Source: JBDRCC01 sp043822065 [NCBI: archaeon] (GTDB taxonomy: Archaea > Undinarchaeota > CAZHTU01). Taken from it: a stretch of 38,334 nucleotides of DNA. This document shows, piece after piece, positions 977 to 25,068 of the stretch. The notes beneath the pieces were generated by a model. The model was not told the DNA's origin. It saw only the letters and a list, made by a program, of their open reading frames with translations, and did no database searches. How positions within the stretch are numbered: the stretch's first letter is position 1; the number at the start of each line of letters is the position of its first letter. The stretch lies in NCBI GenBank assembly GCA_043822065.1, contig JBDRCC010000016.1, positions 1-38,334 of the forward strand. Reading direction: 5' to 3'. The translations under genes and the position numbers were made by a program.

Positions 977-2082
977 CTCATGCCTCCAAAGACCTTTAAC
1001 ATGGTTAGAGGACTACAAAGCACGTTGGTGTAGTTGGCATTTGCAAGCGGGCAGTAGCAGTTTTTGTGCTTAATGAACCTGCGTATCTCGTCTGCTTTCT
1101 CTGAGAACCAGACCCTGCGGAGATCATAGTCATTCTCTCGCAGGTTCCCCATGGACTTGGCTGAAATGCAGCATGCCCAGACATTTCCGAAGGGATCTAC
1201 GTGTCCAGACGCAATTCCAGCATAGCAGGGCAATATCTGCCTTTTTTCTGCTAAAACTTTCTTAACACTGTTATAGTACTCAAGCCGCAATGCTTTTATC
1301 ATCTTGTGAAAGCCCTTTGTCTTTTTCATTTCAGTAAGCATGCCATTCTCAACGGGATAAATGGCTTTCGCATACTCTTCTGCAGAGGGTGTGATGTCCA
1401 TGTTCATGGTATCCAGCTCAACCCTATTTTCTGCTGTTTCAGTTATGTACGAGTCAGGCTTTAGTTCCGTCATTACGAACTCGTAGATGTTCTTGATCTC
1501 CGGCAGATTCATCTTTGAGATTACAGTGTGGATCCCAAGCGTAAAATTGTCATGCCCCCCCTTGAGACTTTTCAGCCTGCCGTAAGTGTCTATCAGCTTG
1601 TCGAAGTTTCCGTTGATCCCCCTCATCTCGTCGTGCTTCTTTCCAATTCCATCAAGGGACAAATTGATGACGACCTTCGTGTCCTTGCATTCTTCCAGAA
1701 TCTGCGCGACTTTATCTTCAGTTCTCTTCGGCAACAGGCCGTTCGTCGGTATGTTAATGACTTCTGGATTAGTTCGTGTCGCGTAACTGCAGATGTCGAC
1801 AATATCCTTTCTCAAAAACGGTTCACCACCACTCAGAGTAAACCAGACCGTGGACTTGCCTAATTTATCAATTATCTCTTCATATTCGTCCGTCCGTAGC
1901 TCCTTTCCAGCCCTTTTAGTGTCTTTCTTGTAAAATTGCCAGATGTTACATGTCCTGCACTTGGAGTTGCAAGCAAAGGTCAGAGACAAGGTCAAATTGA
2001 CAGGGAGGAGTCTTGGCGACTTAAAACTTCTGTACGTCTTGTAGCCGAGACAATAAAGTCCAAGCATTGGTCCAAATCTCAT
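973..2082 (-). CDS. Radical SAM enzyme with SPASM-like cysteine-rich C-terminus
   Basis: Predicted SAM-cleaving iron-sulfur enzyme of 369 residues. The cluster motif CxxxCxxC is at Cys38, Cys42 and Cys45, and GGEP, which contacts SAM, is at 85-88. The last ~90 residues carry further cysteines (CYAG, WACC, NCYCP and one more near the end) like a SPASM or twitch domain that binds auxiliary Fe-S clusters. Known relatives in polysaccharide loci are poorly characterised; possible roles are sugar dehydration, epimerisation, or modification of a peptide or lipid. It sits between a GT2 and an SDR with 4-nt ATGA overlaps on both sides, so a role in the same glycan pathway is inferred. The enzyme class is certain; the substrate is unknown. 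Confidence 0.85.
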   Translation of the reverse strand: MRFGPMLGLYCLGYKTYRSFKSPRLLPVNLTLSLTFACNSKCRTCNIWQFYKKDTKRAGKELRTDEYEEIIDKLGKSTVWFTLSGGEPFLRKDIVDICSYATRTNPEVINIPTNGLLPKRTEDKVAQILEECKDTKVVINLSLDGIGKKHDEMRGINGNFDKLIDTYGRLKSLKGGHDNFTLGIHTVISKMNLPEIKNIYEFVMTELKPDSYITETAENRVELDTMNMDITPSAEEYAKAIYPVENGMLTEMKKTKGFHKMIKALRLEYYNSVKKVLAEKRQILPCYAGIASGHVDPFGNVWACCISAKSMGNLRENDYDLRRVWFSEKADEIRRFIKHKNCYCPLANANYTNVLCSPLTMLKVFGGMR

Positions 2083-2969
2083 TTCTTTTTAAGGTCCTTA
2101 GTTGTTTTTGATATCTCCCAGTTGTATGGGTTTCTCTTGAAGATATAAAAATCAATATCTGCAAGAAGTCGTATGTATACGTCGAGTGCAACGGCAAAAA
2201 CAGTCCACACTAACCTCTTAGGGCTAATCTCAGAATGTTTTATCAAATTTCTAACCACTCGAGTCTTTTTTTCAGTAGATGGCGAATAACCCTGCGTGTG
2301 CTTCAAATGCATATGGCCCAAATATATTCTTTTCCTTTGTTTGATAAAATCTCGAATTGTTTCAGGACCCTTGTTGTATATTTCAGAATCCTTGGCATAA
2401 GCAAGTTCATATCCCTTCTGAGTTATTATCGCCTCAATTGAAGCCTCATCGACTGCAGTTGTCATTGGAATATCCTTTACGAGATTTTTGAATGCTACAA
2501 TTTCTCCGAGTTTTGGATTCTCAAGTGCAACTAAGTGATGCAAGCCCCATACTAAATGAACCACGAACCCCATAAATGTCTCTTTATCATTCAGGGGAAT
2601 AGATTTTCCTCCGGTCATTCCGATATTCTCACGCTTCAATGGAGAAACAAGATTAGCAATCGTTTTCTTGTTCGCAGGGAGCGTGTCTGCACTTTGTAAT
2701 ACAAGTACGTCCCCCGTAGCCTTTTTCAGAAATAGATTAATTGCAGACGCTTTCCCTTCTTTCTTTTTCTGGCTAATCAGCTTGACTTTATTACTCTTTA
2801 TCATGAATTTTTTTATTATATCCTCCGTCCTATCTGTACTTCCGCTCGATACGACATAAATATCTTGGATTGTATCCCCTCTCTGCATTTTCTGTTCAAG
2901 AAGCCCACCTAATAGCTTTCCTATGTTCTTTTCTTCATTATAAGCACAAATCCCAATACTGACTCTCAT
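2079..2969 (-). CDS. Family 2 glycosyltransferase, AT-rich, atypical DxD site
   Basis: GT-A fold glycosyltransferase of 296 residues. The start is the ATG at 2969, giving MRVSIGICAYNEEKN, a normal GT2 N-terminus; it overlaps the upstream TGA as ATGA. An in-frame start at 3029 would run deep into the previous gene and add non-homologous residues. Visible: CAYNEEKN near residue 8, SSGSTDRTED near 41, QSAD where GT2 enzymes usually have DxD, and KQRKRIYLG resembling the QxxRW region of processive GT2s. A weakly hydrophobic segment lies near the C-terminus (WTVFAVALDVYIRLL). The gene is clearly more AT-rich than most of the window, suggesting recent acquisition. Donor and acceptor are unknown. 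Confidence 0.85.
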   Translation of the reverse strand: MRVSIGICAYNEEKNIGKLLGGLLEQKMQRGDTIQDIYVVSSGSTDRTEDIIKKFMIKSNKVKLISQKKKEGKASAINLFLKKATGDVLVLQSADTLPANKKTIANLVSPLKRENIGMTGGKSIPLNDKETFMGFVVHLVWGLHHLVALENPKLGEIVAFKNLVKDIPMTTAVDEASIEAIITQKGYELAYAKDSEIYNKGPETIRDFIKQRKRIYLGHMHLKHTQGYSPSTEKKTRVVRNLIKHSEISPKRLVWTVFAVALDVYIRLLADIDFYIFKRNPYNWEISKTTKDLKKK

Positions 2970-4600
2970 TTTTTGAAATACTCCAGCGTCCTCCCAAGAC
3001 CTTTTTCCAAAGGAACAGTCGGTATCCAATTTAGCATTTCTTTTGCTTTTGAAACATCTGGCTGTCTCTTTGTCGGATCATTTTCTGGGAGTGGACGGTA
3101 CATAAGTCGTGATTTTGATTTAGTCATCTTCTTTACCATCAAAGCCACATTCTTTACAGAAAATTCATCACAATTACCCATGTTGAAAACTTCGCCAGAA
3201 TATCTCGAATACATTAATCTCTTTATACCATCTACTAAGTCAGTAACATAACAAAAACTTCTAGTCTGGGTGCCTTTGCCGTATATTGTAATCGGCTTGT
3301 TCGTCAGCGCCTGGTTCACTATGTTCGGGATGAGCCTGCCGTCGTCCTTCTGCATCCGCGGACCGTATGTGTTGAAAATCCTTACTATCCTAACGTCAAG
3401 CCCGTACTTCCGCTCGTATGACTTGACCAGCGCCTCCGAAAACCTCTTGCCCTCATCGTAGCAGCTTCTTACTCCGATTGAGTTGACATTTCCCCAGTAT
3501 TCCTCCCTCTGCGGGTGCTGCAGCGGCTCGCCGTATACCTCCGACGTCGAGGCCTCAAGGAACCTCGCGCCCTTCTTCCTGGCAAGCTCAAGGAAGTTTA
3601 GGGTGCCTACTGAGTTAGTCAGCATAATGTCAATCGGGTACTTGTAGAAGTCCACGGGGCTCGCCCTTGACGCCATGTGGAAAACATAATCTACCGTACC
3701 TGGGTAATCGAACTTCTCCTTGACATCGTGCTTTACGAACTCGAAGTTTTTGTTCCTAAGGAGATGCCTTATGTTCTTCTTTCGCCCCGTGCTCAGATTG
3801 TCGACGCAGACGACTTTGAGCCCGTCGTCTAGAAGCATCTCGCAGAGGAATGAGCCTATGAACCCCGCCCCTCCGGTCACTACTGCAGTCCCGCCCCTCA
3901 GAAGCGCCTCTGCAATGTCAAGGTCTATGAAATTTCCTGTGTCCTTCCACCAGCCAGTTATCCGAATCGGATTAATCCTCTTGCCGGCTGAGACCATCAT
4001 CTGGAGGGTGTCCGTTATCTCGTACTCCCCTCTCTTGGACGGCTTAAGCCTGCCTATGAACCTAAACACATCTGGTCCGGAAAAAAAGTATATGCCCGTT
4101 ATCGCGAGGTTTGAAGGCGGGACACTTGGTTTCTCCACGAGCCGCTTAATTCTCCCCTTTTGTATCTCGGCTACTCCGAGTTCCTTCGGGTTGTCGACCT
4201 CCTTGAGGACAATGCTAGAAACTGCGCCAGACTTTTCATGCTCCACCTTGAGCCGCTTTATACTGTCCTGGAAGATGTTGTCCGAAAGGAGAAGCACAAA
4301 AGGCGACTCACCGACGAAACTTTTTGCATACGAAAGTGCGTGTGCTATGCCCAACGGTTTTGGCTGCCGGGCATACGTTATCCTTACTCCAAACTTGGAG
4401 CCGTCACCGAAATATGCGCGTATCTTCTCCCCATATCTTCCAGTTACGATGCATATCTCGCGGATTCCAGCCCGCTTCAGCTTTTGCACGGAATACCAGA
4501 GAAGCGGCTTCCCGTTTATCTCGACCAAAGCCTTCGGCTTGTTAAGCGTAAGTGGCCTGAGCCTTTTCCCAAGGCCCGCCGCAAGTACAACACCTTTCAT
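2966..4600 (-). CDS. Fusion: sugar-phosphate nucleotidyltransferase + UDP-glucuronate-decarboxylase-like SDR
   Basis: A 544-residue two-domain cytoplasmic enzyme. Residues 1-235 are a nucleotidyltransferase: AGLGKRLRPLT at 8-18, LLLSDN at 103-108, EKP at 157-159 and GWWKDTGN at 216-223, ending where the catalytic domain normally ends and lacking a left-handed beta-helix tail. Residues 237-544 are an extended SDR: TGGAGFIGS at 242-250, ASTSEVYGEP near 350-359, REEYWGNVN, and RSCYDEGKR with Tyr381 and Lys385. These signatures match UDP-xylose synthase most closely. No stop separates the domains and no plausible start lies at the junction near 3893. Inference: sugar-1-phosphate activation coupled to 4-keto chemistry, possibly UDP-pentose synthesis with the adjacent dehydrogenase. 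It overlaps that gene by 1 nt (TAATG). Base composition changes sharply inside the SDR domain near 3280. Confidence 0.88.
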   Translation of the reverse strand: MKGVVLAAGLGKRLRPLTLNKPKALVEINGKPLLWYSVQKLKRAGIREICIVTGRYGEKIRAYFGDGSKFGVRITYARQPKPLGIAHALSYAKSFVGESPFVLLLSDNIFQDSIKRLKVEHEKSGAVSSIVLKEVDNPKELGVAEIQKGRIKRLVEKPSVPPSNLAITGIYFFSGPDVFRFIGRLKPSKRGEYEITDTLQMMVSAGKRINPIRITGWWKDTGNFIDLDIAEALLRGGTAVVTGGAGFIGSFLCEMLLDDGLKVVCVDNLSTGRKKNIRHLLRNKNFEFVKHDVKEKFDYPGTVDYVFHMASRASPVDFYKYPIDIMLTNSVGTLNFLELARKKGARFLEASTSEVYGEPLQHPQREEYWGNVNSIGVRSCYDEGKRFSEALVKSYERKYGLDVRIVRIFNTYGPRMQKDDGRLIPNIVNQALTNKPITIYGKGTQTRSFCYVTDLVDGIKRLMYSRYSGEVFNMGNCDEFSVKNVALMVKKMTKSKSRLMYRPLPENDPTKRQPDVSKAKEMLNWIPTVPLEKGLGRTLEYFKK

Positions 4601-6108
4601 TATCCAACACCATACTTAAGGACCGTCTTTCCAGAATCTCTTATGGATTTCAGGTCCTCAGTTATGTTTCTCATGTCTACAAGAATTTTATACTTTCCTC
4701 TTGTGAAATCCACCGAGTAAAACTCAGTATGGTCTGAGACGATTATTATTGCGTCAACGTCAAGGCTCTCGCCGAACTCCAAATGCGCCCCAAACTTCTC
4801 CTGGTCCTCTGCCGGAACCCACGGATCGTAAACATAGACCTCGGCGCCGTTCCTCTTAAGCTCTTCCGAGATAAACTTTGCTCCGGTAAGCCGCGTGTCG
4901 TCAGTGTTCCCCTTGAACGCTACCCCATACAGGCAGACCCGCATACCCTTTACCTCTTTACCCAGCTTCTTCGCGCCTTTCTTGAGGAGCTCTATGGAGT
5001 GGAATGGGACGTATTCGTTGAGCTTCCTGCCAGCCATTATGACGTTCTTTTCCTTAAGCTCGTCTTTCATTGGCTCGGCTACGTAATACGTATCCTCCGG
5101 CAGGCAGTGGCCGCCGACCATCCCTGGCTGGAATATCCTGGTCTTTGGCAGGGTGTTCGCCGCGTTTATCACCTGGTATACGTCCAAGCCGTGCTTCTCG
5201 CAGAACATTGCGAAATCATTCGCTATCCCTATGTTGCAGTCCCTGTACGAATTCTCGAAAACCTTGGATGCCTCAGTTATCCTAGGGCTGTCGAACATGA
5301 AAACCGGCGCGCCAAGGGTGTCGAACAATGCCTTGGCAATAATGTTAGCATCTTTGCTCTTCGACCCGACAGTCCGCGGGAGCTCCTTGAAGTCCTTTAT
5401 TGCGCGGCCCTCTGCAATCCGCTCCTGCATGTGGCACATGCCAAACTTCCGCTTCGTTAGCTTTTTCATAAGCTCTTCAGCCTCGTCAGTCGCGCCGACC
5501 GGGACCGTTGACTTGTTTATTATGACATCCCCGTCCTTTTCAAGGGCCTTAGCTATGTCCTCGCAAACCTTCAGTACTATGGAATAGTCGTCGGCATACG
5601 TGGGCACGGTTATCACGTGGATGTCCGTCTTCTTGGTCGCCTCAATGTTATCCTCAGTTATCTCGTAATTTCCGCTCTTCAGGGCTTCCTTGAGGTAATC
5701 TTGGAGGGTTTTGAGCTTTCCTTTTACGTCCACAGTCTCATGCTTTATCATGGGTATGCCTTCTACGATGTCAAAGCACCGGAGGCACATTGGGCAGAAA
5801 ACGTGCTTTTTGTACTTAAACAGGTTAACGCTGTCTATGGTGCACTTCTGGGGAATCTCCTTTGCACCCTGCTTCAAAAGGGAGTTCGGGTCAGTCTCAT
5901 CTATCGGGCATATGCCCTTCCTTATCCTCTCAATCGCCTTTTTGTCCTTCGTCACGCCGACAACCTTAATCCCTTCTATGGCAAACAGGATAGAAAGGGG
6001 CAGCCCTACGTAGCCCTGTCCATGAACCGAGACAGATATGTCTCCTTTCTTGAGCTTTTCAATAAACTTTTTTGGATTATCAGCTAATTCCATCACATCT
6101 ATTGGCAT
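4600..6108 (-). CDS. UDP-glucose/UDP-ManNAc 6-dehydrogenase family with four-cysteine insertion
   Basis: NAD-dependent nucleotide-sugar 6-dehydrogenase (four-electron oxidation of a UDP-hexose to a UDP-uronate), 502 residues, long for the family (about 420-440). Visible: GQGYVGLP at 30-37, KSTVPVGAT at 199-207, EASKVFENSYRD with catalytic Lys282, GGHCLPED with catalytic Cys335, and AFKGNTDDTR in the C-terminal domain. The extra length is mostly an insertion at about 88-150 carrying Cys89, Cys105, Cys108 and Cys111 (CPMCLRC), a likely metal site. The WecC-like N-terminus favours UDP-ManNAc, but the following UDP-xylose-synthase-like gene would make UDP-glucose logical; specificity is unresolved. 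It is the first gene of a minus-strand operon, with a TATA-like box 24 nt upstream of the ATG, so the mRNA is probably almost leaderless. Confidence 0.9.
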   Translation of the reverse strand: MPIDVMELADNPKKFIEKLKKGDISVSVHGQGYVGLPLSILFAIEGIKVVGVTKDKKAIERIRKGICPIDETDPNSLLKQGAKEIPQKCTIDSVNLFKYKKHVFCPMCLRCFDIVEGIPMIKHETVDVKGKLKTLQDYLKEALKSGNYEITEDNIEATKKTDIHVITVPTYADDYSIVLKVCEDIAKALEKDGDVIINKSTVPVGATDEAEELMKKLTKRKFGMCHMQERIAEGRAIKDFKELPRTVGSKSKDANIIAKALFDTLGAPVFMFDSPRITEASKVFENSYRDCNIGIANDFAMFCEKHGLDVYQVINAANTLPKTRIFQPGMVGGHCLPEDTYYVAEPMKDELKEKNVIMAGRKLNEYVPFHSIELLKKGAKKLGKEVKGMRVCLYGVAFKGNTDDTRLTGAKFISEELKRNGAEVYVYDPWVPAEDQEKFGAHLEFGESLDVDAIIIVSDHTEFYSVDFTRGKYKILVDMRNITEDLKSIRDSGKTVLKYGVG

Positions 6109-6132: not shown

Positions 6133-6144
6133 CTATATATAATT
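6133..6144 (-). promoter_or_regulatory. TATA-like box for the dehydrogenase operon
   Basis: On the minus strand AATTATATATAG ends 24 nt before the ATG at 6108. With archaeal spacing of about 25 nt from TATA centre to transcription start, the start falls within a few nt of the ATG. The box overlaps the stop of the frameshifted GT2 gene. Inferred from sequence and spacing only. Confidence 0.65.
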
Positions 6145-6848
6145 AACGTACTTGGCAGAGGGTATAGCTAATCCTCAGTGAAAGCAGTTCTAAAAATATG
6201 CCTATTACCGTATGCGCCTTTATCTTGCTCCCTCCAACATGCCTCCAAGTTATTGGCAGTACGCTCACCTTGTAACCAAACTTCTTTGCAAGGTAGAGGA
6301 CCTCAACATCGAAAACCCATCTTTTGCTCCGCAGGCTGCCGAAAATTCTTTTGCCGGCGTCCCTCCTGAATCCCTTAAACCCGCAAAGCGAGTCGTACAT
6401 CTCTATCCTGAACATCGAGTTCGCAAGGAAATTAAATATCCTCCCCACAAATATCCTGCTTGCTGGCTGCCTTTTTGGTACTGTGCTCTTTTCGTGTATC
6501 TTGCTCGAGACGACCACGTCTGACTTATCCAGCTCCTTTGACATCCTATCAATCTCCGGCGGCTTTATCGAGCCGTCAGCGTCTATGAACATTATCTTCT
6601 TCCCGGAAGCGATGCCAACGCCGGTTTTTACCGCCGCGCCCCTTCCCCTTGTTCTGCCCATGCTTTGCGACTTTCTTCCCCCCATACTTAAAACCCTCTA
6701 TTACCTTTAAGGTCCCGTCTGTGGAGCCGTCATCGACGAAAATTACCTCTATCGATCTCCCCGTTAGGAACCTAGAAAGCTCTTCCAGAAATGGGGGAAG
6801 CCGCTTCTCCTCGTTATAGCAAGGCACTATCAAAGAAATCTCAGCCAT
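6143..6848 (-). pseudogene. Polyprenyl-phosphate GT2 (Dol-P-glucose/mannose synthase-like), split by a one-base frameshift
   Basis: Two overlapping frames together encode one complete GT2 of the Dol-P-sugar synthase type. The N-terminal part (6848 to about 6645) has LIVPCYNEEKRLPPF and VIFVDDGSTDGTLKVIEGF. The C-terminal part (about 6640 to 6143) has GAAVKTGV, IMFIDADGS (the DxD site), DSLCGFKGFRRDA and RWVFDVEVLYLAKK. The normal family sequence NKGKGAAVKTG is restored by removing one G from the G-runs on the minus strand within 6639-6650. This could be a real inactivating mutation, a homopolymer sequencing error, or a slippage site. As written, the frames would give a 90-residue N-terminal product (6576-6848) and a separate C-terminal product (6143-6685). 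The conserved residues on both sides argue for recent origin or error. If functional, it charges polyprenyl phosphate on the cytoplasmic face. Confidence 0.8.
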
Positions 6849-15796: not shown

Positions 15797-15804
15797 ACCT
15801 CCTC
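15797..15804 (-). promoter_or_regulatory. Strong Shine-Dalgarno site for the rfbE-like gene
   Basis: GAGGAGGT on the minus strand ends 3 nt before the ATG at 15793 and overlaps the TGA of the upstream epimerase. It is one of the best SD sequences in the window and is found at an operon-internal gene, not at a leading gene. Confidence 0.7.
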
Positions 15805-16933
15805 AAACGAGCAGCTTCTTTTCGTCGAGCTCTTTTTTTGCCTGCTCAAATCCGTCGACCGCGTTTTCGCCGCTCTGGTCTGCTACCCATCCAGCCAATT
15901 CCTTTATGCCGTCCTCGAATTTTACTCCCGGCTTGAAGCCGAGCCTCTTCTGTATCCTGCTTAGGTCAGCATAACAGTGCCGGATGTCCCCCTTCCGGAA
16001 CTTGTTCGTCAGCTCCGGCTTCAGGGTCTTTTTCTGCGCTTTGATTAGGACCTCGGCTATTTCCTTTATTGATATCGGCTTCCCGCTCCCCACGTTGAAA
16101 ACCTCATAATCCGCCTTGCTGCTGTTCATCGCCATGATGTTTGCGCGGACTATGTCGCTGACGTGTATGAAATCTCGGCTCTGGCCGCCGTCCTCAGTTA
16201 TCACTGGCGGGTTGTCGTTCTTAATCCGTGAAGAGAAAATCGCGCATACGCCCGTATATGGATTCGACAGCGCCTGCCTCGAGCCGTAGACGTTGAAATA
16301 CCTTAAGGCGACCGAAGGTATGCCATAGGTCTTCCCAAGGATTATCGACATTTCCTCCTGGTCCTTTTTGCCGAGGGCATATATCGAATTCGTAAACGGT
16401 GGCTTCATCTCGTCCGTCGGAACTGGCTTGAGCTGCTTTTTGCAGGACGGGCACTTGACCTCCCACTCTTGCTTTTTCATCTGTTCCATGCCCCTCAGCT
16501 GGGGATAAACTACTCCGCACTTTGGGCACTCGTACTTTCCCTCGCCATATAGCGACATCGATGATGCGACAATGAACTTTTTGACCGAGTTTTCCTTGTT
16601 CACCAGCCAGTCCCACATTCTAGCCGTTGCACCTGTGTTGGCGTCCATGTAATGCCCTATTTGGTACATCGACTGCGCAACGCCAACCGCAGACGCCTCA
16701 TGGAACACGACCTCGTGGTCCTTGAAGAGCCCGGTCATGACATCTTCATCTCTGACGTCCGCTTTTATGAATTCGGCTTCAGAATTGAGATAACTCGGCT
16801 TATTTCCGCCTGGGTGGACCTGCTCAACCAGGGAGTCCACTATGGTAACGTCATGCCCGTCCCTAATAAGCCCGTCCACAAGGTGGGAGCCGATAAAGCC
16901 CGCGCCGCCGGTGACTAGCACCTTATAGCTCAT
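15803..16933 (-). CDS. Nucleotide-sugar epimerase with zinc-ribbon insertion (dTDP-L-rhamnose 4-epimerase-like)
   Basis: Extended SDR of 376 residues: TGGAGFIGSH at 8-17, SSMSLYGEG at 124-132 and SIYALGKK with Tyr185 and Lys189. Between the Ser and Tyr motifs is an insertion with Cys136, Cys139 (CPKC), Cys161 and Cys164 (CPSC), a complete C2-C2 zinc-ribbon pattern. This insertion followed by a P-T-x-E-x-K segment is, to my knowledge, characteristic of a subgroup that includes dTDP-L-rhamnose 4-epimerases. Role: nucleotide-sugar epimerisation in the cytoplasm. It leads a four-gene minus-strand operon and has a TATA-like box at leaderless spacing. The exact nucleotide sugar is uncertain. Confidence 0.85.
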   Translation of the reverse strand: MSYKVLVTGGAGFIGSHLVDGLIRDGHDVTIVDSLVEQVHPGGNKPSYLNSEAEFIKADVRDEDVMTGLFKDHEVVFHEASAVGVAQSMYQIGHYMDANTGATARMWDWLVNKENSVKKFIVASSMSLYGEGKYECPKCGVVYPQLRGMEQMKKQEWEVKCPSCKKQLKPVPTDEMKPPFTNSIYALGKKDQEEMSIILGKTYGIPSVALRYFNVYGSRQALSNPYTGVCAIFSSRIKNDNPPVITEDGGQSRDFIHVSDIVRANIMAMNSSKADYEVFNVGSGKPISIKEIAEVLIKAQKKTLKPELTNKFRKGDIRHCYADLSRIQKRLGFKPGVKFEDGIKELAGWVADQSGENAVDGFEQAKKELDEKKLLV

Positions 16934-16976: not shown

Positions 16977-17939
16977 TTAGGCTATCTCCCCTGACTTTAC
17001 CATCTCTATCAGGCTCTTGTCCTCTTTAGGGTCAAGAAGGCGCAGGACTATCTCCTTCTCCCTCTGCGTAAGCTGCGTCTTGCGCATGCCGTTTACAAGG
17101 TTAAGCTTCGCAATGGTTGCTATATTCGTCAGAAGCAGCTGAATCCACTCCTCCCGCCTCTTTTCAGCCTCCACAAAAGTCGGGTAGATAGTAGCCTTCC
17201 AGTCAAGCCCATGTTCCATCATGCTGAACATTACATGCACCCCTAGACGCGCCCCATAAAGGAACGAGTGGGCTATCTCGCCGCCAAGTGTGTACGAACG
17301 CATCTCGTTGAAAAACATCCGCTCGGTTTTAACCCCTCCCTGGGTGCCAGTTGGAGTGTAGTACCTGCCAGCGTCCCTGAGAAAGTCGACGCAAGCCACT
17401 GGCAGGTCATTCTCTGGGAACTTTTTTTCTGGAAACGCATATAGGAACTTTTCAGGCTTCCTGCTTATGTTTAACGAGTACATGATTCCCCGCTCGTAGT
17501 CTGTCTTCCTCTGGTACTTCTTGTTTGCAGCCTTTATCTCGGACGAAACATTATAAATCTCCTCGTCCAACCTATCTACAATATCCACTTTTTCTTCCGT
17601 CCGCTCCTCCTCCGGAAGCCTGTAATTTATCTTTCTCCTATTCGTGTTTATGAAACCGGAGAGCGCCCCAAGTGCGTAAGCCCGGTGTATGAGTATCGGG
17701 CTTGTAATCTTTGAAAACCGCCGCCTCGTCTCTTCCAGGTTAGCTATGTCTATGCCGTACCTATCACGTACTACGCCGAGCCCAAGAGACGCAACCCCAC
17801 ATAGGTTTATCTGGTTTATCCCGCTCCGCTCCTCGTCTTCAAGCTCCTGAAGATGCTTAAGGAAATACGAGTCTGTCCTCATCAAATCAGCAAGGTCTTC
17901 CTTAACTTTCTTGAGAATCCATTTAGCTCTGTATGGCAT
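16977..17939 (-). CDS. Uncharacterised soluble protein, 320 residues
   Basis: I do not recognise this protein. It is a charged, apparently cytoplasmic protein with no signal peptide or clear membrane helix. It looks mainly helical, with a lysine- and glutamate-rich middle (LPEEERTEEKVDIVDRLDEE at about 110-130). GGEIAHSFLYGARLGVHVMF, near 217-236, is the most hydrophobic stretch and could be a core. No cysteine pair, P-loop or known catalytic motif is evident. It has its own TATA-like box and forms a single-gene unit divergent from the 18023 gene, 83 nt away. Coding is supported by length, promoter spacing and gap-free packing with neighbours. Confidence 0.75.
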   Translation of the reverse strand: MPYRAKWILKKVKEDLADLMRTDSYFLKHLQELEDEERSGINQINLCGVASLGLGVVRDRYGIDIANLEETRRRFSKITSPILIHRAYALGALSGFINTNRRKINYRLPEEERTEEKVDIVDRLDEEIYNVSSEIKAANKKYQRKTDYERGIMYSLNISRKPEKFLYAFPEKKFPENDLPVACVDFLRDAGRYYTPTGTQGGVKTERMFFNEMRSYTLGGEIAHSFLYGARLGVHVMFSMMEHGLDWKATIYPTFVEAEKRREEWIQLLLTNIATIAKLNLVNGMRKTQLTQREKEIVLRLLDPKEDKSLIEMVKSGEIA

Positions 17940-19346: not shown

Positions 19347-19356
19347 TTTTTAATAT
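19347..19356 (+). promoter_or_regulatory. TATA-like box for the 19377 gene
   Basis: TTTTTAATAT ends about 21 nt before the ATG at 19377. This spacing favours that ATG over the in-frame TTG at 19356, which would lie inside the box. Confidence 0.6.
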
Positions 19357-19376
19357 TGTCCCACTTTCCTACTGCC

Positions 19377-21116
19377 ATGGCAGGCAGGAAGCAGCAGATA
19401 GAATTGAACCTTAACATACACAAGGAGCATGTCTTCCTTGGCCTTGTCATACTTGTTGCAGCTATGGGGTTTATCACTATCCACCTCCCATTTACCAATG
19501 GGCAGATAGACCGCAGCTATCCTGCAATTTCGATGGCCGTAGACAACGGCTACCACGTAGTTGTCTCAAAATACATCTATGACTCCGGCGATGTTAAATA
19601 CTGGCCTGCATTCGTGGCAGACAACCAGCAGTCAGTATCCCTTCAGCCGCCGGCTTACTATGTCTTTGTAGCCTCTTTTGCCAGATTTTCTGGCTTGTCT
19701 GTCTACGATTCAGCATTCCTGCTAACGAGCATAGGGGCAGTCTCTGTTTGCCTATCAGTCTACGCCCTTACAAGAAAATATTTTGGAGAGCGGCTTGCGT
19801 TGCTGGCTTTAGTGCTTGGGGCAATACCCATCTCAGTCTACTGGTACTTTCCAATACACATTGGATTCCAGCTGAATACCTACGCCTGGATTTTTGTCCC
19901 GGCAATACTCTTCCTGACAATATGCGTTTACGAGAGGCAGGAATGGTGGGCAGCGCCGTCAATTGCCCTGATGCTCTCTGCGCAGTTTCTCAGCCACTTG
20001 CCAGAGTTCTACCTCTCATTTGCTTTTTTTGCAGGAATGAGCCTCATAGCCATCCTACTAAAAAAGGAGCGGCTGAAAATCCTTAAGGTCATAGGGCTGG
20101 CTTTTTTGCTTCTGCTCCTACTCGTGGTTTACTATGCACCGCTGCAGGCGGCAGAGTATGGGTACGGCGGGTCAAATGTCCGCCTTGGCCAGGTCTGGCC
20201 GCCCTCCGACTATTTTCCAACTGCCAAGCTAGAACTTGTCTTCTGGCCTTTTGCCCTTCTTGGCGTGCTTTTCTTCGGCGACCAAATATACCGAAAAAAG
20301 CTTGACCTCCAGCGGACTACTGTGCTTCTTTTTATCCTCTATACTCTCACATTTAGCATGAGCTATCTAATCGGATTTAACGGCACTAGGACATACAAGC
20401 AGTTCTTCCTTGGCCACCCATTTTATGTCCTCCTGCCAGCTGCCGGGGTATACCTTATCTACTATCTAACCGTAAAAACAATCCTCCCTGTCAAGGAGAT
20501 AGACCACCACCACAGCAACCTCCTCTTTGCCCTCCTAATAATCGCCATTGCGGTTGCTAGCGCTTATTCAATATACCCTCCCTTGAAATCTATAGGAGAA
20601 AACCAGCTGATGAACCCAGAGCTGTGGGAGGGGATACAATGGGTCAATGAGAACACGCCGCAGGACAGCACCGTGCTGGCATTTGTCGGCTTCCGCCAAT
20701 TCACCGAGGAGTACCTATTGAGAAAGAAAATGTCCTCAAACCTTGACAAGGGCTATACGATTTATAACATCCAGCCCCTTTGCCAGGGCCAATTTATAGA
20801 AACGTACTTAGGCACCTGGAACCTTTACGCCCAGACGAAGAACGTGCGAAAAAGCTTTTTTAACATCGAGCGAACCCCGCTCCCTGCCGTCTCTGGCGGG
20901 CAGTCAAACGACCAGCGCCAGGCGGCACTGGCTGATTTTGATTACGTCATAACCGTCTATAACCAGACTGCGACTGACCCGGCAGTCAGCATAACAGGCG
21001 TCTCAATCGACCCGTGCATGCACTTCTACCTAAATGAAATGGTAAACCGCGGCCACTACTTAGTGTTCATGAACTCAAAAGTTGCCGTAATCGAGGTGAA
21101 CAAGGATGTCCTTTGA
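19377..21116 (+). CDS. GT-C-like multi-pass membrane protein
   Basis: Polytopic protein of 579 residues. After the first helix (VFLGLVILVAAMGFITI) comes an external loop with NGQIDRSYPAISMA and PPAYYVFVASFARF, the usual layout of GT-C glycosyltransferases. About ten helices follow, including a very hydrophobic stretch (LAFLLLLLLVVYYAP). The C-terminal soluble part has WVNENTPQDSTVLAF, a motif recurrent in GT-C proteins of archaeal and bacterial glycan loci, and LADFDYVITVYN. The start at 19377 is set by the TATA-like box. The next gene starts 11 nt before this one ends, so the two products are probably made together. Confidence 0.78.
   Translation: MAGRKQQIELNLNIHKEHVFLGLVILVAAMGFITIHLPFTNGQIDRSYPAISMAVDNGYHVVVSKYIYDSGDVKYWPAFVADNQQSVSLQPPAYYVFVASFARFSGLSVYDSAFLLTSIGAVSVCLSVYALTRKYFGERLALLALVLGAIPISVYWYFPIHIGFQLNTYAWIFVPAILFLTICVYERQEWWAAPSIALMLSAQFLSHLPEFYLSFAFFAGMSLIAILLKKERLKILKVIGLAFLLLLLLVVYYAPLQAAEYGYGGSNVRLGQVWPPSDYFPTAKLELVFWPFALLGVLFFGDQIYRKKLDLQRTTVLLFILYTLTFSMSYLIGFNGTRTYKQFFLGHPFYVLLPAAGVYLIYYLTVKTILPVKEIDHHHSNLLFALLIIAIAVASAYSIYPPLKSIGENQLMNPELWEGIQWVNENTPQDSTVLAFVGFRQFTEEYLLRKKMSSNLDKGYTIYNIQPLCQGQFIETYLGTWNLYAQTKNVRKSFFNIERTPLPAVSGGQSNDQRQAALADFDYVITVYNQTATDPAVSITGVSIDPCMHFYLNEMVNRGHYLVFMNSKVAVIEVNKDVL
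21093..21099 (+). promoter_or_regulatory. Shine-Dalgarno site for the DUF1616-like gene
   Basis: GAGGTGA lies 6 nt before the ATG at 21106, inside the end of the GT-C gene, and supports that start. Confidence 0.65.
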
Positions 21117-21477: not shown

Positions 21478-22404
21478 AAGATAGAGGAAAGACAGCAAGC
21501 CGACAATGTAGTAAAACATCATCCCTATCCCCCTGCCTAGTAGTATGCCCGCCGCCGCAGAGCTCTTTGTTATCCCGTATACAACCATTATCGCTAAAAA
21601 TACGGCTTCGGTAGACCCCCATCCGCCGGGAAGGAAGCTCACGAGGCCGCACAGCACAGTAAACGCGGTTGCGCCGACAAAAAAAGCCCATCCGAGCCCA
21701 TGAATCCCCACTGCCAGGAAGCTAAAATAAAATATCGCCCCGTCTAAAACCCATATCGGTATGCTAATGAGAAATGCCGCAGTTAGTGTGCCCTTCCCTA
21801 CCCTAGCCGTCCTGTAGAAGCTCTTTACAAACTCTTCCGTCACGTAGTTCTTTATTACTGGGAGCCGTTCCACAAACGTCAGCATCTTGTAGCCAATTCT
21901 CTCAGAATACATCATAAGCATCACAAGTGCAACAATTGCTACGACAAAGAGGATAGCAACCCTTCCCAGAAATACAAATCCCGGCTCAAGCGTTCCAACA
22001 AAATAGGCCCCAAACGGCGCAGCAAAGGCTAAAAGAAGCATCAAGTCAAACACGCGCTCCCATATTATGGACGACAGACTAGTTGAGACTCGGATACCCT
22101 CTGATTTCTTCAGGAAAAGCGACTTAGCCGCCTCCCCGACCTTTGCAGGGGTAAGGTTGCTTATCGCAATCCCTGCCATGAAGACGGGGAATATCCTAAA
22201 AAACCTTATCCGCTTCACCGGGTCGAGCAGGACCTTCCATCTTAGCGTCCTGAGCAGTGCCGTAGCCGGCGGTATCATAAAAACCCACAGGAGGAATGCC
22301 GGGTCAGACGAAACAATCTGTGAATACACAGCAGCCGGGTCGCTAACGTAGACCACTGCCGCGAGCAGCACTACCGAAAGCACAATTAGCAGTTGCTTGT
22401 ACAT
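21457..22404 (-). CDS. Lysylphosphatidylglycerol synthetase TM-domain / UPF0104 (AglD-like) membrane protein
   Basis: Integral membrane protein of 315 residues with about eight helices. Diagnostic segments: TLRWKVLL near 53, SNLTPAKVGEAAKSLFLKK (the N-x-x-P-x-K-x-GE motif) near 83-101, IIWERVFDL, and FLPGGWGSTEAVF near the C-terminus. This fold (PF03706) occurs in MprF flippases and as the C-terminal domain of haloarchaeal AglD/AglR, where a role in moving polyprenyl-phosphate sugars across the membrane has been proposed. That role would supply the GT-C enzymes here. I use the ATG at 22404, which overlaps the upstream TGA by 1 nt; a TTG at 22407 is the alternative. Confidence 0.85.
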   Translation of the reverse strand: MYKQLLIVLSVVLLAAVVYVSDPAAVYSQIVSSDPAFLLWVFMIPPATALLRTLRWKVLLDPVKRIRFFRIFPVFMAGIAISNLTPAKVGEAAKSLFLKKSEGIRVSTSLSSIIWERVFDLMLLLAFAAPFGAYFVGTLEPGFVFLGRVAILFVVAIVALVMLMMYSERIGYKMLTFVERLPVIKNYVTEEFVKSFYRTARVGKGTLTAAFLISIPIWVLDGAIFYFSFLAVGIHGLGWAFFVGATAFTVLCGLVSFLPGGWGSTEAVFLAIMVVYGITKSSAAAGILLGRGIGMMFYYIVGLLSFLYLSKMKPQ

Positions 22405-24020
22405 CAAAACACCTCAAGTACTGCGGTGACAAGCGAGTTGTCACCTTCACCATATTCGAACACGGCTACTGGCTTATAGTGGGGGGAATTGAAGAACTTA
22501 TCTAGCCCGCCGCTCTGGGCGTAATATTGCAGCTCGTATATGTTTATCACCAGATACTGCGCGCCGTTCTCCTTCAGAAGAGCATAAGCCTCAGCTTCAT
22601 CCGTCGACATGTATATCGTATTAACCTCTGCAGTCAACCGTTCAAGCTCAGAATACGGGCTGGAATGCCCCATCTCATTAGCGACGACGCCCCGTCCCGT
22701 GAGGGCGTTTATCATAAACGCAGTAAGCGGGTTCGCAGCTATTATCGCATCCTTTGGAGTGTTCTCGCTTATCCAGTCTGCAGTATCCTTGAAAATGGGC
22801 GGCACAGGCTCCGCAGCGGACCATTCGTCCTTAAACGCATTCTCCTTGTACTTCATCGGGCCCAGGGGCGCAAGCAGGAGCATGAAAAGAAGGACAACAA
22901 AGACCACCTTATCTTGGGATATGATTTTCCTTTCAACTAGCGCGTCAGCAACCAGCTTTACCCCAACCGCAGCTGCGATTGAGAGGCCTACGCCCAAGAC
23001 AAAATAAAATTTGTGCGGCTGGAAGAGTATCCCAAGCAGCGGATACGTAACATAAAAATGGAATATCCCTGCGTATGCCGACAGCAGGAACGCGAGGCCG
23101 ATTATGTCCTGCGGCCTGCGGCTCTTGTACATGCTATACGCGCCGAGCAAGCCTAAAACAAAGAAAGCGCCCTGCCCAAATGTCGAGCCCCAGAGGTCTT
23201 TTGTAAAAACCGGCGGCGAGCCCCCTTCAAAGCCAAGTGTGGACTCGATAGACCGCGTGGGAACGAGGTGGTACTTTGCAATAAGCGGCCCCCAAAACAG
23301 CATGGAGATAATGAATCCGATTGCAAGGACAAGCCCAATTTGCTTCAGGCGCTCTATTGGTATCCTCAAGGCGGGCTTCCTAGAAAACGAGGCGAACGCC
23401 ACGAGAAGGAACGACAGCACAAACATCATCAGCCATGCTGCAACATAAGTATGTACATGGGTCAGCCCCAGGAGCCCTAGGCTTATGCCTGCGCATATGC
23501 CGTCTCTCTGCCGTTTGCCTGTGCTGTACTTATACATGAAATAAAGCACCCACGGAAGTATTACATAGGACAGGTTAACCGGGACGGGCACAAGCGAGTC
23601 TGTTCCCGGGCTTGTGAAAAAGAGTGCAAAAAATGCAGTCAGCACGCCTGCGAACTCGCCAAACAGCGCCTTTCCAAGCCGGTAATATGAATACAGAAAC
23701 GCAATTGTCAGGAAAAGCGGGAGCCATACAAGTATCCTAAAAAAATCAAAGCCGGTTATGATGTGTATAAACACCACCATGTAATGCCATAGCCAGGGGT
23801 ACCAGGCATATGTGTTCCTGTACGCGGAGTCATAAAAGGGGGAATTGCCATTATTGAGATAGTTGACTATCCCAAGCGCCTGGTATACGTCGCCACCTAT
23901 CAGCGGCCCGTTCGGCCGCTCAAACATAGAAAAAGAGGAAAACAAAACCACTGCGACAACCGCGCAGATTGCAATGAAAAGTGCCTCCTCTGCCCCGAAT
24001 TTGAGCTTAAACTTGACCAT
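22404..24020 (-). CDS. GT-C-like multi-pass membrane protein
   Basis: Polytopic protein of 538 residues. The first helix (ALFIAICAVVAVVLFSSF) leads to an external loop with PLIGGDVYQALGIV and NTYAWYPWLWHYM, where GGD is a plausible catalytic acidic site. About ten further helices follow, then a soluble tail with WISENTPKDAIIAANP and LTGRGVVANEMG, similar to other GT-C enzymes that act on lipid-linked sugars. The start is the ATG at 24020, supported by a TATA-like box 20 nt upstream; an in-frame start at 24182 would read 54 residues into the divergent GT4 gene. It is followed directly by the UPF0104 gene, which suggests a donor-flippase and transferase pair. Confidence 0.8.
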   Translation of the reverse strand: MVKFKLKFGAEEALFIAICAVVAVVLFSSFSMFERPNGPLIGGDVYQALGIVNYLNNGNSPFYDSAYRNTYAWYPWLWHYMVVFIHIITGFDFFRILVWLPLFLTIAFLYSYYRLGKALFGEFAGVLTAFFALFFTSPGTDSLVPVPVNLSYVILPWVLYFMYKYSTGKRQRDGICAGISLGLLGLTHVHTYVAAWLMMFVLSFLLVAFASFSRKPALRIPIERLKQIGLVLAIGFIISMLFWGPLIAKYHLVPTRSIESTLGFEGGSPPVFTKDLWGSTFGQGAFFVLGLLGAYSMYKSRRPQDIIGLAFLLSAYAGIFHFYVTYPLLGILFQPHKFYFVLGVGLSIAAAVGVKLVADALVERKIISQDKVVFVVLLFMLLLAPLGPMKYKENAFKDEWSAAEPVPPIFKDTADWISENTPKDAIIAANPLTAFMINALTGRGVVANEMGHSSPYSELERLTAEVNTIYMSTDEAEAYALLKENGAQYLVINIYELQYYAQSGGLDKFFNSPHYKPVAVFEYGEGDNSLVTAVLEVF

Positions 24021-24023
24021 ATC

Positions 24024-24034
24024 TTTATCAATAT
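24024..24034 (+). promoter_or_regulatory. TATA-like element for the 24055 GT4 gene
   Basis: TTTATCAATAT ends about 20 nt before the ATG at 24055. It lies immediately upstream of, and almost touching, the divergent start codon at 24020. The internal C makes it a weaker match than the opposing box. Confidence 0.45.
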
Positions 24035-24038
24035 CCGA

Positions 24039-24050
24039 CCTATATAAAAA
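24039..24050 (-). promoter_or_regulatory. TATA-like box for the 24020 GT-C gene
   Basis: TTTTTATATAGG on the minus strand ends about 19 nt before the ATG at 24020, fitting leaderless transcription. It lies 4 nt from the divergent ATG at 24055. Confidence 0.6.
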
Positions 24051-24054
24051 ACCT

Positions 24055-25068
24055 ATGAGGATTCTGGAGCTGATAACTGAAAAGCCACCTGTGAAAAGCG
24101 GCTTTGCCACCACTGCGCGCGTCCTTAAGGATGGGCTTGAGGCAAGGGGGCACACCGTCGATGTCCTTTCATTGGCCGACACAAAATTCTGGAAGCTCTA
24201 TGCATTCCGCCCGAACCTGATGTTCCTAAAGTGCCTGAAGCCATGGAAATACGACGTCATAAATGTCCATGGCAACTCGCCTTTCTTCAGCGAGCTTCTT
24301 GTTCTAAAGCTGGCGCCGTTCAGAAACAAGCTGGTCTATACGTTCCACTGCGATGCGAATTCAAAGTACTCTGCAATAAACAAGCTCTATAACTCGCTCC
24401 ACCGGCTTCTCCTGAAAATACCTGTCAAAGTAATTACCACCACTCCTGACTACAAAGCGTACTCAGGCGTCCCCTCGAAATCCGTTGCCATCCCCTTTGG
24501 GGTAGATAAAATTTCACTAAAGAAGAAGCCAGCCGGCTTTAACGTCCTCTTCGTAGGCCAGATGCGGCTCTACAAGGGGGTAGACGTTCTACTAAGGGCG
24601 TGGAAGGAAATCCAGGGAGATGGCCACCTTCATCTCGTGGGCGATGGAATAGACAAGGCGACTTGGATGGGACTAGCAAAGGAGCTTAATCTAAAGAATT
24701 TAACTTGGCATGGAAAAGTTGATGACAAGAAGCTAAGCGAGCTATACAACAAGTCGCATGTTATCGTGCTGCCGTCAGTCAACACCGGCGAGGCCTTTGG
24801 CATAGTGCTCCTTGAGGGCATGTCTCATGGATGCTTCCCAGTTTCATCCGACCTTATAGGGCTAAGGTATGTCGCAAGCCATTTCAGCTCAACATTCCCC
24901 GCCGGCAGTCACATAGGGCTCGCCAGGCTTCTTACAAAGATACGAAAGGAAAAGCAGTGGGCAACAAAAAGGGGCAACATCGGGGAGTTTCTGAAAGAGC
25001 ATACGTGGGCGAAATTCATCGACCGGTACGAAGCCGTTTACGCCTCCGTGGCAAAAAGTATAAAATAG
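24055..25068 (+). CDS. Family 4 glycosyltransferase (GT-B fold)
   Basis: Retaining GT4 of 337 residues acting on the cytoplasmic face. N-terminal half: ELITEKPPVKSGFATTAR near 5-22 (acceptor-side loop) and YTFHCDAN at about 95-102. C-terminal half: NVLFVGQMRLYKGVDVLL near 163-180 (strand and phosphate-contacting Lys), and TGEAFGIVLLEGMSHG with the EAFGIVLLE nucleotide-sugar motif at 246-254. The ATG at 24055 begins MRILELITEKP, a normal start; an earlier in-frame start at 23863 would lie inside the divergent gene. It probably adds one sugar to a lipid-linked glycan. The stop overlaps the promoter of the next gene. Confidence 0.88.
   Translation: MRILELITEKPPVKSGFATTARVLKDGLEARGHTVDVLSLADTKFWKLYAFRPNLMFLKCLKPWKYDVINVHGNSPFFSELLVLKLAPFRNKLVYTFHCDANSKYSAINKLYNSLHRLLLKIPVKVITTTPDYKAYSGVPSKSVAIPFGVDKISLKKKPAGFNVLFVGQMRLYKGVDVLLRAWKEIQGDGHLHLVGDGIDKATWMGLAKELNLKNLTWHGKVDDKKLSELYNKSHVIVLPSVNTGEAFGIVLLEGMSHGCFPVSSDLIGLRYVASHFSSTFPAGSHIGLARLLTKIRKEKQWATKRGNIGEFLKEHTWAKFIDRYEAVYASVAKSIK

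What the first reader, a model, noticed from the sequence alone, without database searches (positions are those of the whole stretch)
2966..4600. Nucleotidyltransferase fused to a UDP-xylose-synthase-like SDR
Seen: one uninterrupted frame joins a complete nucleotidyltransferase domain (1-235) to a complete extended SDR (237-544) with almost no linker, and without an internal start codon at the junction (near 3893). Known: these activities are normally separate proteins; the SDR signatures (ASTSEVYGEP, REEYWGNVN, RSCYDEGKR) are those of UDP-glucuronate decarboxylases. Inference: with the adjacent dehydrogenase, overlapping by 1 nt, it could be a compact sugar-1-P to UDP-sugar to UDP-uronate to UDP-pentose route whose first and last steps are on one chain.
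Basis: partly seen in the sequence, partly recalled or inferred. Interest (0 to 1): 0.7.

Follow-up and report, generated by a model that had tools for sequence, protein, structure and literature searches.

The report
Sugar nucleotidyltransferase fused to xylose-donor decarboxylase
An archaeal surface-sugar gene cluster carries one protein in which a sugar-activating enzyme and an enzyme that makes the donor form of xylose are joined end to end with almost no linker, a combination not seen in the relatives checked, although the two genes often sit side by side there.

Summary
The fused frame is real: minus strand 4600-2966, 544 aa. Residues 1-235 are an RmlA-type nucleotidyltransferase core; 238-544 are a close relative of human UDP-xylose synthase (49% identity; Z 45). 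The model joins the last helix of the first domain to strand 1 of the second through two glycines (mean pLDDT 95.0, pTM 0.91), at the place where free-standing relatives start.

Gene order dehydrogenase-nucleotidyltransferase-UXS occurs unfused in 25 of 163 UXS loci; none of the 163 is fused. However, the window's nucleotidyltransferase groups with RmlA-long (dTDP-glucose) enzymes, and the adjacent dehydrogenase carries GGHC and ranks nearest UDP-HexNAc dehydrogenases. Substrates are therefore open.

Verdict: a genuine new domain combination of two well-known enzymes, of moderate interest. Other nucleotide-sugar fusions occur in other genomes surveyed. Caveat: a sharp GC3 break at about 3266 points to recombination or misassembly in the last 100 codons, not at the junction.

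The parts
2966..4600 (-). fused ORF, 544 aa plus stop: nucleotidyltransferase + UDP-xylose synthase-type SDR
3896..4600 (-). nucleotidyltransferase domain, residues 1-235; RmlA-type catalytic core without the C-terminal third of RmlA-long
3890..3895 (-). junction, codons 236-237 (GGC GGG): Gly-Gly between helix 224-235 and strand 238-242, at or next to the start Met of free-standing UXS rows
2969..3889 (-). UDP-glucuronate decarboxylase (UXS)-type SDR domain, residues 238-544
3878..3880 (-). in-frame GTG (V241), the only ATG/GTG/TTG codon in codons 203-254; a poor internal start because it lies inside the first strand
4600..6108 (-). nucleotide-sugar 6-dehydrogenase, 502 aa, GGHC motif, Cys-containing insert around residues 70-132; shares base 4600 with the fused ORF
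2079..3029 (-). downstream glycosyltransferase family 2 gene, listed from a TTG start that overlaps the fused ORF; the true start may lie further in
3266..3266 (.). GC3 break inside the SDR domain (after codon 445; 0.66 before, 0.31 after); possible recombination or misassembly point

Best explanation
A bifunctional enzyme made by in-frame joining of two neighbouring genes of a glycan operon. SHOWN from sequence and model: two complete, separately folded domains with the conserved motifs of a sugar-1-phosphate nucleotidylyltransferase and of a UDP-glucuronate decarboxylase, joined through two glycines. INFERRED: the first domain makes an NDP-hexose (most likely dTDP- or UDP-glucose from glucose-1-phosphate); the second turns UDP-glucuronate into UDP-xylose by oxidation at C4, loss of CO2 and reduction on bound NAD. 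The fusion fixes equal amounts of the two activities and places them beside the product of the overlapping dehydrogenase gene. Two independent active sites are more likely than a tunnel, because the dehydrogenase step lies between them. The product would feed the glycosyltransferases of this surface-glycan cluster.
For: One uninterrupted frame. NTP_transferase and Epimerase domains. SDR: best PDB relative human UXS1, 335.8 bits over 240-544; 79 of 81 columns that are at least 95% conserved among 161 UXS rows kept; Z 45.0, rmsd 1.2 over 305 residues to 2b69. NTase: 19 of 20 columns that are at least 90% conserved in 37 rows kept; Foldseek match to thymidylyltransferase 4ecm, TMt 0.92, 40%. Model mean pLDDT 95.0, pTM 0.91. 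Trio gene order in 25 of 163 loci as separate genes. GC3 shows no strong break within codons 1-450 (184 of 2000 shuffles as high), so composition gives no sign of a join at the junction.
Against: No second copy of the fusion: 0 of 163 UXS loci. The conserved Gly before the conserved Asp107 is Ser106 in the window (Gly in 35 of 37 rows, Ala in 1, gap in 1), which may weaken the first activity. NTase kin are dTDP-glucose enzymes and the dehydrogenase looks HexNAc-type, so the three need not form one route. The C-terminal 100 codons differ in composition.
Confidence: 0.6

Rival explanations
1. The two halves serve different routes: the RmlA-like half makes dTDP-glucose for a dTDP-sugar, the UXS half makes UDP-xylose, and the joining only ties their expression together.
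For: NTase groups with RmlA-long in a starred set of 24 rows (100/95), apart from NTases of UXS operons; three of its 47-50% relatives were scanned and are RmlA-long over cut-off, and four SDRs near such NTases are dTDP-glucose 4,6-dehydratases over cut-off. The window also holds a glucose-1-phosphate cytidylyltransferase over cut-off, so it makes more than one NDP-sugar.
Against: No RmlB or RmlD model reaches its cut-off among the nine window proteins (best 190.7 of 365.1 and 206.2 of 224.05 bits). RmlA-type enzymes often also take UTP (recalled).
Confidence: 0.2
2. UDP-N-acetylxylosamine route: the adjacent HexNAc-type dehydrogenase makes UDP-GlcNAcA and the SDR half decarboxylates it to UDP-XylNAc, as in the Bacillus cereus NVH 391-98 pathway described in PMC5078965.
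For: GGHC dehydrogenase whose best specific model and nearest PDB chains are HexNAc-type dehydrogenases; a two-enzyme precedent exists (passages).
Against: The SDR is an ordinary UXS by sequence: 79 of 81 conserved columns. UXNAcS sequences were not compared here. NTase kin are glucose-1-phosphate enzymes.
Confidence: 0.1
3. Artefact: the fusion comes from a sequencing indel or a chimeric join of two adjacent genes.
For: A frameshifted GT2 gene lies just upstream (6143-6848), and a sharp composition break lies at about 3266, so the contig is not above suspicion. Unfused neighbours often overlap by 4 nt.
Against: No ATG, GTG or TTG stands where the free-standing UXS rows start; an indel would not supply one (codons GGC GGG). 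The join falls at residue 1 of the UXS, composition is even across it, and the model is confident through it.
Confidence: 0.06
4. The UXS half is made separately from the internal GTG at codon 241.
For: GTG in frame at 3880.
Against: The product would lose three of the five residues of strand 238-242 of the Rossmann fold, which the printed relatives keep.
Confidence: 0.04

Closest known systems
UDP-glucuronate decarboxylase / UDP-xylose synthase (human UXS1, PDB 2b69 and 4gll; archaeal Mth373 of PMC12820599, abstract and passages seen)
   Same: Whole SDR domain: fold, NAD motif, TSE and YxxxK residues; 49% identity to 2b69
   Different: Free-standing there; here it lacks its own start and follows an NTase domain. 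Mth373 is more distant (27-29% identity).
RmlA-long glucose-1-phosphate thymidylyltransferase (TIGR01208)
   Same: Catalytic core, profile positions 1-234 of 353; up to 50% identity to members from the G002 phylum
   Different: C-terminal third of the family is missing and the UXS follows instead; family cut-off not met (267.5 of 320.25); Ser106 for Gly.
Archaeal operon dehydrogenase - NTase - UXS as separate genes (e.g. L107, L108, L117)
   Same: Gene order and strand
   Different: Genes separate; best dehydrogenase model TuaD in the two scanned, though under its cut-off (620.3 and 534.2 of 700 bits); NTases of other lineages.
Other nucleotide-sugar fusions: NTase + GalE-like SDR (L109), RmlD + RmlA type (L115, L337), GT2 + UXS (L329, L330), NTase + GT2 (L336), and ArnA (recalled as formyltransferase + UDP-GlcA decarboxylase; PDB 1z7e)
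   Same: Adjacent pathway enzymes on one chain
   Different: None of these pairs an NTase with a UXS.

Membership tests
UDP-glucuronate decarboxylase (UXS) | extended SDR fold close to solved UXS | tested here: met
   Z 45.0, rmsd 1.2, 305 residues to 2b69; 335.8 bits to 4gll
UDP-glucuronate decarboxylase (UXS) | conserved UXS columns, including TSE and YxxxK | tested here: met
   79 of 81 columns at least 95% conserved in 161 rows; alignment to 4gll
UDP-glucuronate decarboxylase (UXS) | UDP-GlcA to UDP-xylose activity | not testable with these tools
   needs assay
RmlA-long (TIGR01208) | curated cut-off for the whole protein, including the C-terminal region | tested here: not met
   267.5 of 320.25 bits; match stops at profile position 234 of 353
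RmlA-type nucleotidyltransferase catalytic core | conserved columns and fold | tested here: met
   19 of 20 columns, the exception being Gly to Ser106; 4ecm TMt 0.92
RmlA-type nucleotidyltransferase catalytic core | nucleotide and sugar specificity | not testable with these tools
   needs assay
UDP-glucose 6-dehydrogenase (neighbour 4600-6108) | curated NCBIfam cut-offs TuaD or AglM | tested here: not met
   133.9 of 700 and 130.7 of 670 bits; note that TuaD-like neighbours of other UXS genes also stay under that cut-off
UDP-glucose 6-dehydrogenase (neighbour 4600-6108) | GGSC active-site motif (class meaning recalled) | tested here: not met
   GGHCLPED in the window
UDP-N-acetylmannosamine dehydrogenase, archaeal (NF040825) | curated cut-off | tested here: not met
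   218.7 of 750 bits, though the best specific model
nucleotide sugar dehydrogenase (TIGR03026) | curated cut-off | tested here: met
   305.6 bits, cut-off 189.8
UDP-N-acetylxylosamine synthase (UXNAcS) | similarity to the Bacillus cereus UXNAcS sequence | not tested
   sequence not in hand; pathway read in passages of PMC5078965

The most novel reading that the evidence does not exclude
The fused protein and the overlapping, Cys-insert dehydrogenase form a compact three-step assembly in an unplaced archaeal lineage that makes UDP-N-acetylxylosamine (or UDP-xylose) from a sugar-1-phosphate, the first known chain to join activation and decarboxylation of a nucleotide sugar.
Probability: 0.12. 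Interest if true: 0.55.

Novelty: new variant of a known kind. Interest (0 to 1): 0.35.

Why it matters
It would be a ready-made bifunctional enzyme tying sugar activation to pentose-donor formation, useful for asking whether fusion changes flux or feedback in nucleotide-sugar supply. It also fits a picture in which the pairing of NTase and UXS genes in archaea involves several NTase lineages, with fusion as one outcome. Both halves belong to well-known families, so the surprise is moderate.

Tried and rejected
Rejected: apparent UXS fusions in nine genomes of the G002 phylum. The search tool reported open frames of 617-679 aa, but direct reading showed at least one stop between NTase and UXS in all 9 loci, so that column was not used as proof of fusion. 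L070, a 548-aa frame with the SDR from 232, has an Arg-rich leader and no NTase match. G727, with both halves matched, is two separate genes.

Placing the window's organism: GlmM identity was at best 39% in 119 genomes of the G001 phylum and 46% in 60 of the G002 phylum. The protein is the archaeal GlmM (551.3 bits, cut-off 439), so the window is most likely archaeal, but its phylum stays unknown; other archaeal phyla could not be reached. No relative of the dehydrogenase came from viral contigs; the 64 viral contigs relatives of the fusion matched the SDR half. A first alignment for folding (A1) laid the NTase rows over the SDR and was replaced by A2.

Plasmids: of 1862 plasmid records with a match, 558 have one place covering at least 80% of the fusion; all 20 listed rows were joined from two pieces, i.e. 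neighbouring genes, and the other 538 were not inspected, so a fusion among them is not excluded.

Papers: searches showed no paper on an NTase-UXS fusion among the titles and abstracts listed, in open-access full text only; some searches looked for the related pathways. Passages were read of PMC5078965, PMC12407052, PMC12820599 (abstract too) and PMC3220709; the rest as listings.

The VIA-align list was filled by the SDR half, so the NTase half was judged by Foldseek and sequence only.

Full report
WHAT IS THERE. The minus-strand frame 4600-2966 codes for 544 residues from an ATG. Pfam finds NTP_transferase at 2-227 and Epimerase / GDP_Man_Dehyd within 240-536. The best solved relatives are human UDP-glucuronate decarboxylase for 240-544 (335.8 bits) and glucose-1-phosphate thymidylyltransferases for 1-235. 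NCBIfam's best model for the first half is rmlA_long, positions 1-234 of 353, below its cut-off (267.5 of 320.25 bits). The frame shares one base with the upstream dehydrogenase (4600) and overlaps the downstream GT2 reading frame as listed.

THE JUNCTION. In an alignment with 66 relatives, Gly-Gly of the window stands at or next to the start Met of the printed free-standing UXS rows (Met-Lys exactly there in L107, L108, L213 and L214; one residue off or without a Met there in others), directly before the strand that leads to TGGAGFIG. Codons are GGC GGG; the only ATG, GTG or TTG codon in frame between codons 203 and 254 is GTG241. The AlphaFold2 model (mean pLDDT 95.0, pTM 0.91) has helix 224-235, residues 236-237, then strand 238-242. 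The join is therefore exact: complete core, two residues, complete UXS. GC3 shows no strong break in codons 1-450 (184 of 2000 shuffles as high). A sequencing indel could not easily explain this, since no good start codon is left for a separate UXS.

A CAVEAT WITHIN THE SDR. GC3 falls from 0.66 to 0.31 after codon 445, coordinate 3266 (0 of 2000 shuffles as high), and GC of the DNA falls from about 0.50 to about 0.39. The point lies just before the conserved TRSFCYV motif (residues 446-452). For residues 238-445 the ten closest of the 161 rows are all from the two archaeal phyla (up to 64%); for 454-544 nine of the ten closest are bacterial (up to 52%), though differences in the second part are small. 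Recombination inside uxs, or misassembly in a conserved stretch, would both fit. Neither touches the junction, about 600 nt away. A frameshifted GT2 gene lies at 6143-6848.

RELATIVES. I read strict open frames in 163 loci that hold a UXS: 80 from genome contigs, 63 from the phylum of a woesearchaeotal genome (G001), 20 from the phylum of a Methanoperedens genome (G002); L013 and L170 are the same place. Loci from whole genomes were taken from the top of the match lists, not at random, and 9 of the 20 in the G002 group (L218 and L223-L230) were picked because the tool reported long frames there, which favours NTase neighbours. None of the 163 joins an NTase to the UXS. In the G001 group, 34 of 63 have a dehydrogenase within 1.2 kb on the same strand, 22 of 63 an NTase within 120 nt upstream, and 20 of 63 have both in the order dehydrogenase-NTase-UXS; in the G002 group 3, 14 and 3 of 20; in genome contigs 27, 5 and 2 of 80. 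NTase and UXS often overlap by 4 nt. Wider searches with the fused protein covered 279, 246, 193 and 192 genomes of four phyla; not every match was printed, and only suspicious ones were read in detail. The only NTase-first, SDR-second strict frame that I met was L109 (565 aa), whose SDR half has galE as its best NCBIfam model (202.2 of 262.3 bits) and is 33% identical to the window's. In plasmid records, NTase and SDR side by side are common: one place covers at least 80% of the query in 558 of 1862 matched records, two pieces in all 20 listed.

OTHER FUSIONS. In the same surveys: RmlD+RmlA type (L115, L337), GT2+UXS (L329, L330), NTase+GT2 (L336), dehydrogenase+GT2 and a UXS interrupted by an intein (L334), SDR + C-methyltransferase (L110, L112). 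Fusion of neighbours in nucleotide-sugar operons is thus a known kind of event; the NTase-UXS pair is the new part.

LINEAGE OF THE FIRST HALF. In a tree of 77 NTase domains the window's falls in a starred set of 24 rows (19 of the 20 rows labelled RmlA-long, 4 others, the window; 100/95), outside the 41 NTases of UXS operons, which themselves need three label changes, at least two forced. The window's end branch is long and the RmlA rows were picked by similarity to it, so its exact place is unsure. Its nearest relatives (47-50%, seven loci) are 352-360 aa long; the three of them scanned are rmlA_long over cut-off, and the four SDRs scanned next to or within about 1.2 kb of such NTases are dTDP-glucose 4,6-dehydratases over cut-off. 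Of 20 columns at least 90% conserved in 37 NTase rows, 19 are kept; Ser106 replaces the Gly before the conserved Asp107.

THE DEHYDROGENASE. It passes the general TIGR03026 model, but its best specific model is archaeal UDP-ManNAc dehydrogenase (218.7 bits, cut-off 750), ahead of TuaD and AglM; nearest PDB chains are 4r16 and 3ojl (Cap5O). Among its matches in the G001 phylum, the one from G083 ranks first and those from G210 and G090 seventh and eighth; the same three genes score highest for the UDP-ManNAc model among the 14 genomes given. Its motif is GGHC. Of 66 UXS-adjacent dehydrogenases, 51 have GGSC, 6 GGHC, 5 GGFC, 1 GGAC and 3 gave no match to the pattern; in two of the loci with GGHC (L032, L067) a GGSC enzyme stands on the other side of the UXS. 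That GGSC marks UDP-glucose and GGHC marks UDP-HexNAc enzymes is recalled, not tested. The insert around residues 70-132 has no CxxC counterpart in residues 30-170 of any of 119 dehydrogenase frames, no convincing PDB match (best E 0.32) and no confident fold (block pLDDT 38-55 over 71-130).

INTERPRETATION. The second half is a UXS by every test run: 79 of 81 conserved columns, Z 45.0 to 2b69. Archaeal UXS is known: the Mth373 structure (PMC12820599, abstract and passages) and UXS activity reported for a Methanospirillum hungatei protein (PMC3220709, passage). The first half should be an active sugar-1-phosphate nucleotidyltransferase unless Ser106 harms it. Whether both serve one route is open: kinship points to dTDP-glucose for the first, UDP-HexNAc for the dehydrogenase and UDP-GlcA for the last. 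I hold a bifunctional enzyme with two independent sites, supplying glycan building blocks, as most likely (0.6); separate routes 0.2; UDP-XylNAc 0.1; artefact 0.06; internal start 0.04.

NOVELTY. No paper on this fusion was found (open-access library only). It is a new domain combination, not a new kind of system.

Noticed in passing
window 4600-6108 (-), residues about 70-132: Cys-containing insert (with C-x2-C-x2-C) in the N-terminal domain of the dehydrogenase; no CxxC in that region in 119 dehydrogenase frames compared and no confident fold.
   Followed up: partly
window about 3266: Sharp GC3 and GC break inside the UXS domain, at a conserved motif; possible recombination or misassembly point.
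   Followed up: partly
window 6143-6848 (-): GT2 gene split over two overlapping frames (Glycos_transf_2 positions 1-68 and 62-167): a frameshift, real or from sequencing.
   Followed up: partly
window 15803-16933 (-): Epimerase-family SDR with a zinc-ribbon-like insert (two CxxC pairs, CPKC and CPSC) that splits the Pfam match; similar inserts are recalled from other epimerases.
   Followed up: no
L334 3020-5392 (+): UXS in a genome of the phylum of G530 (a Patescibacteria record) interrupted by an intein (Intein_splicing, LAGLIDADG_3), next to a dehydrogenase fused to a GT2.
   Followed up: partly
L329 3078-4805 (-), L330 2197-3927 (+): GT2 domain fused ahead of a UXS in one chain of about 575 aa in two genomes of the phylum of G530.
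   Followed up: partly
L218 and L224: NTase ends in a single TAG in frame with the following UXS; one codon separates them from a fusion.
   Followed up: partly
L109 3930-5627 (-): Independent NTase + GalE-like SDR fusion, 565 aa, in a genome of the G001 phylum.
   Followed up: partly
window 16977-17939 (-), 19356-21116 (+), 22404-24182 (-): Large frames without any Pfam match at E 1e-5 in the glycan cluster.
   Followed up: no
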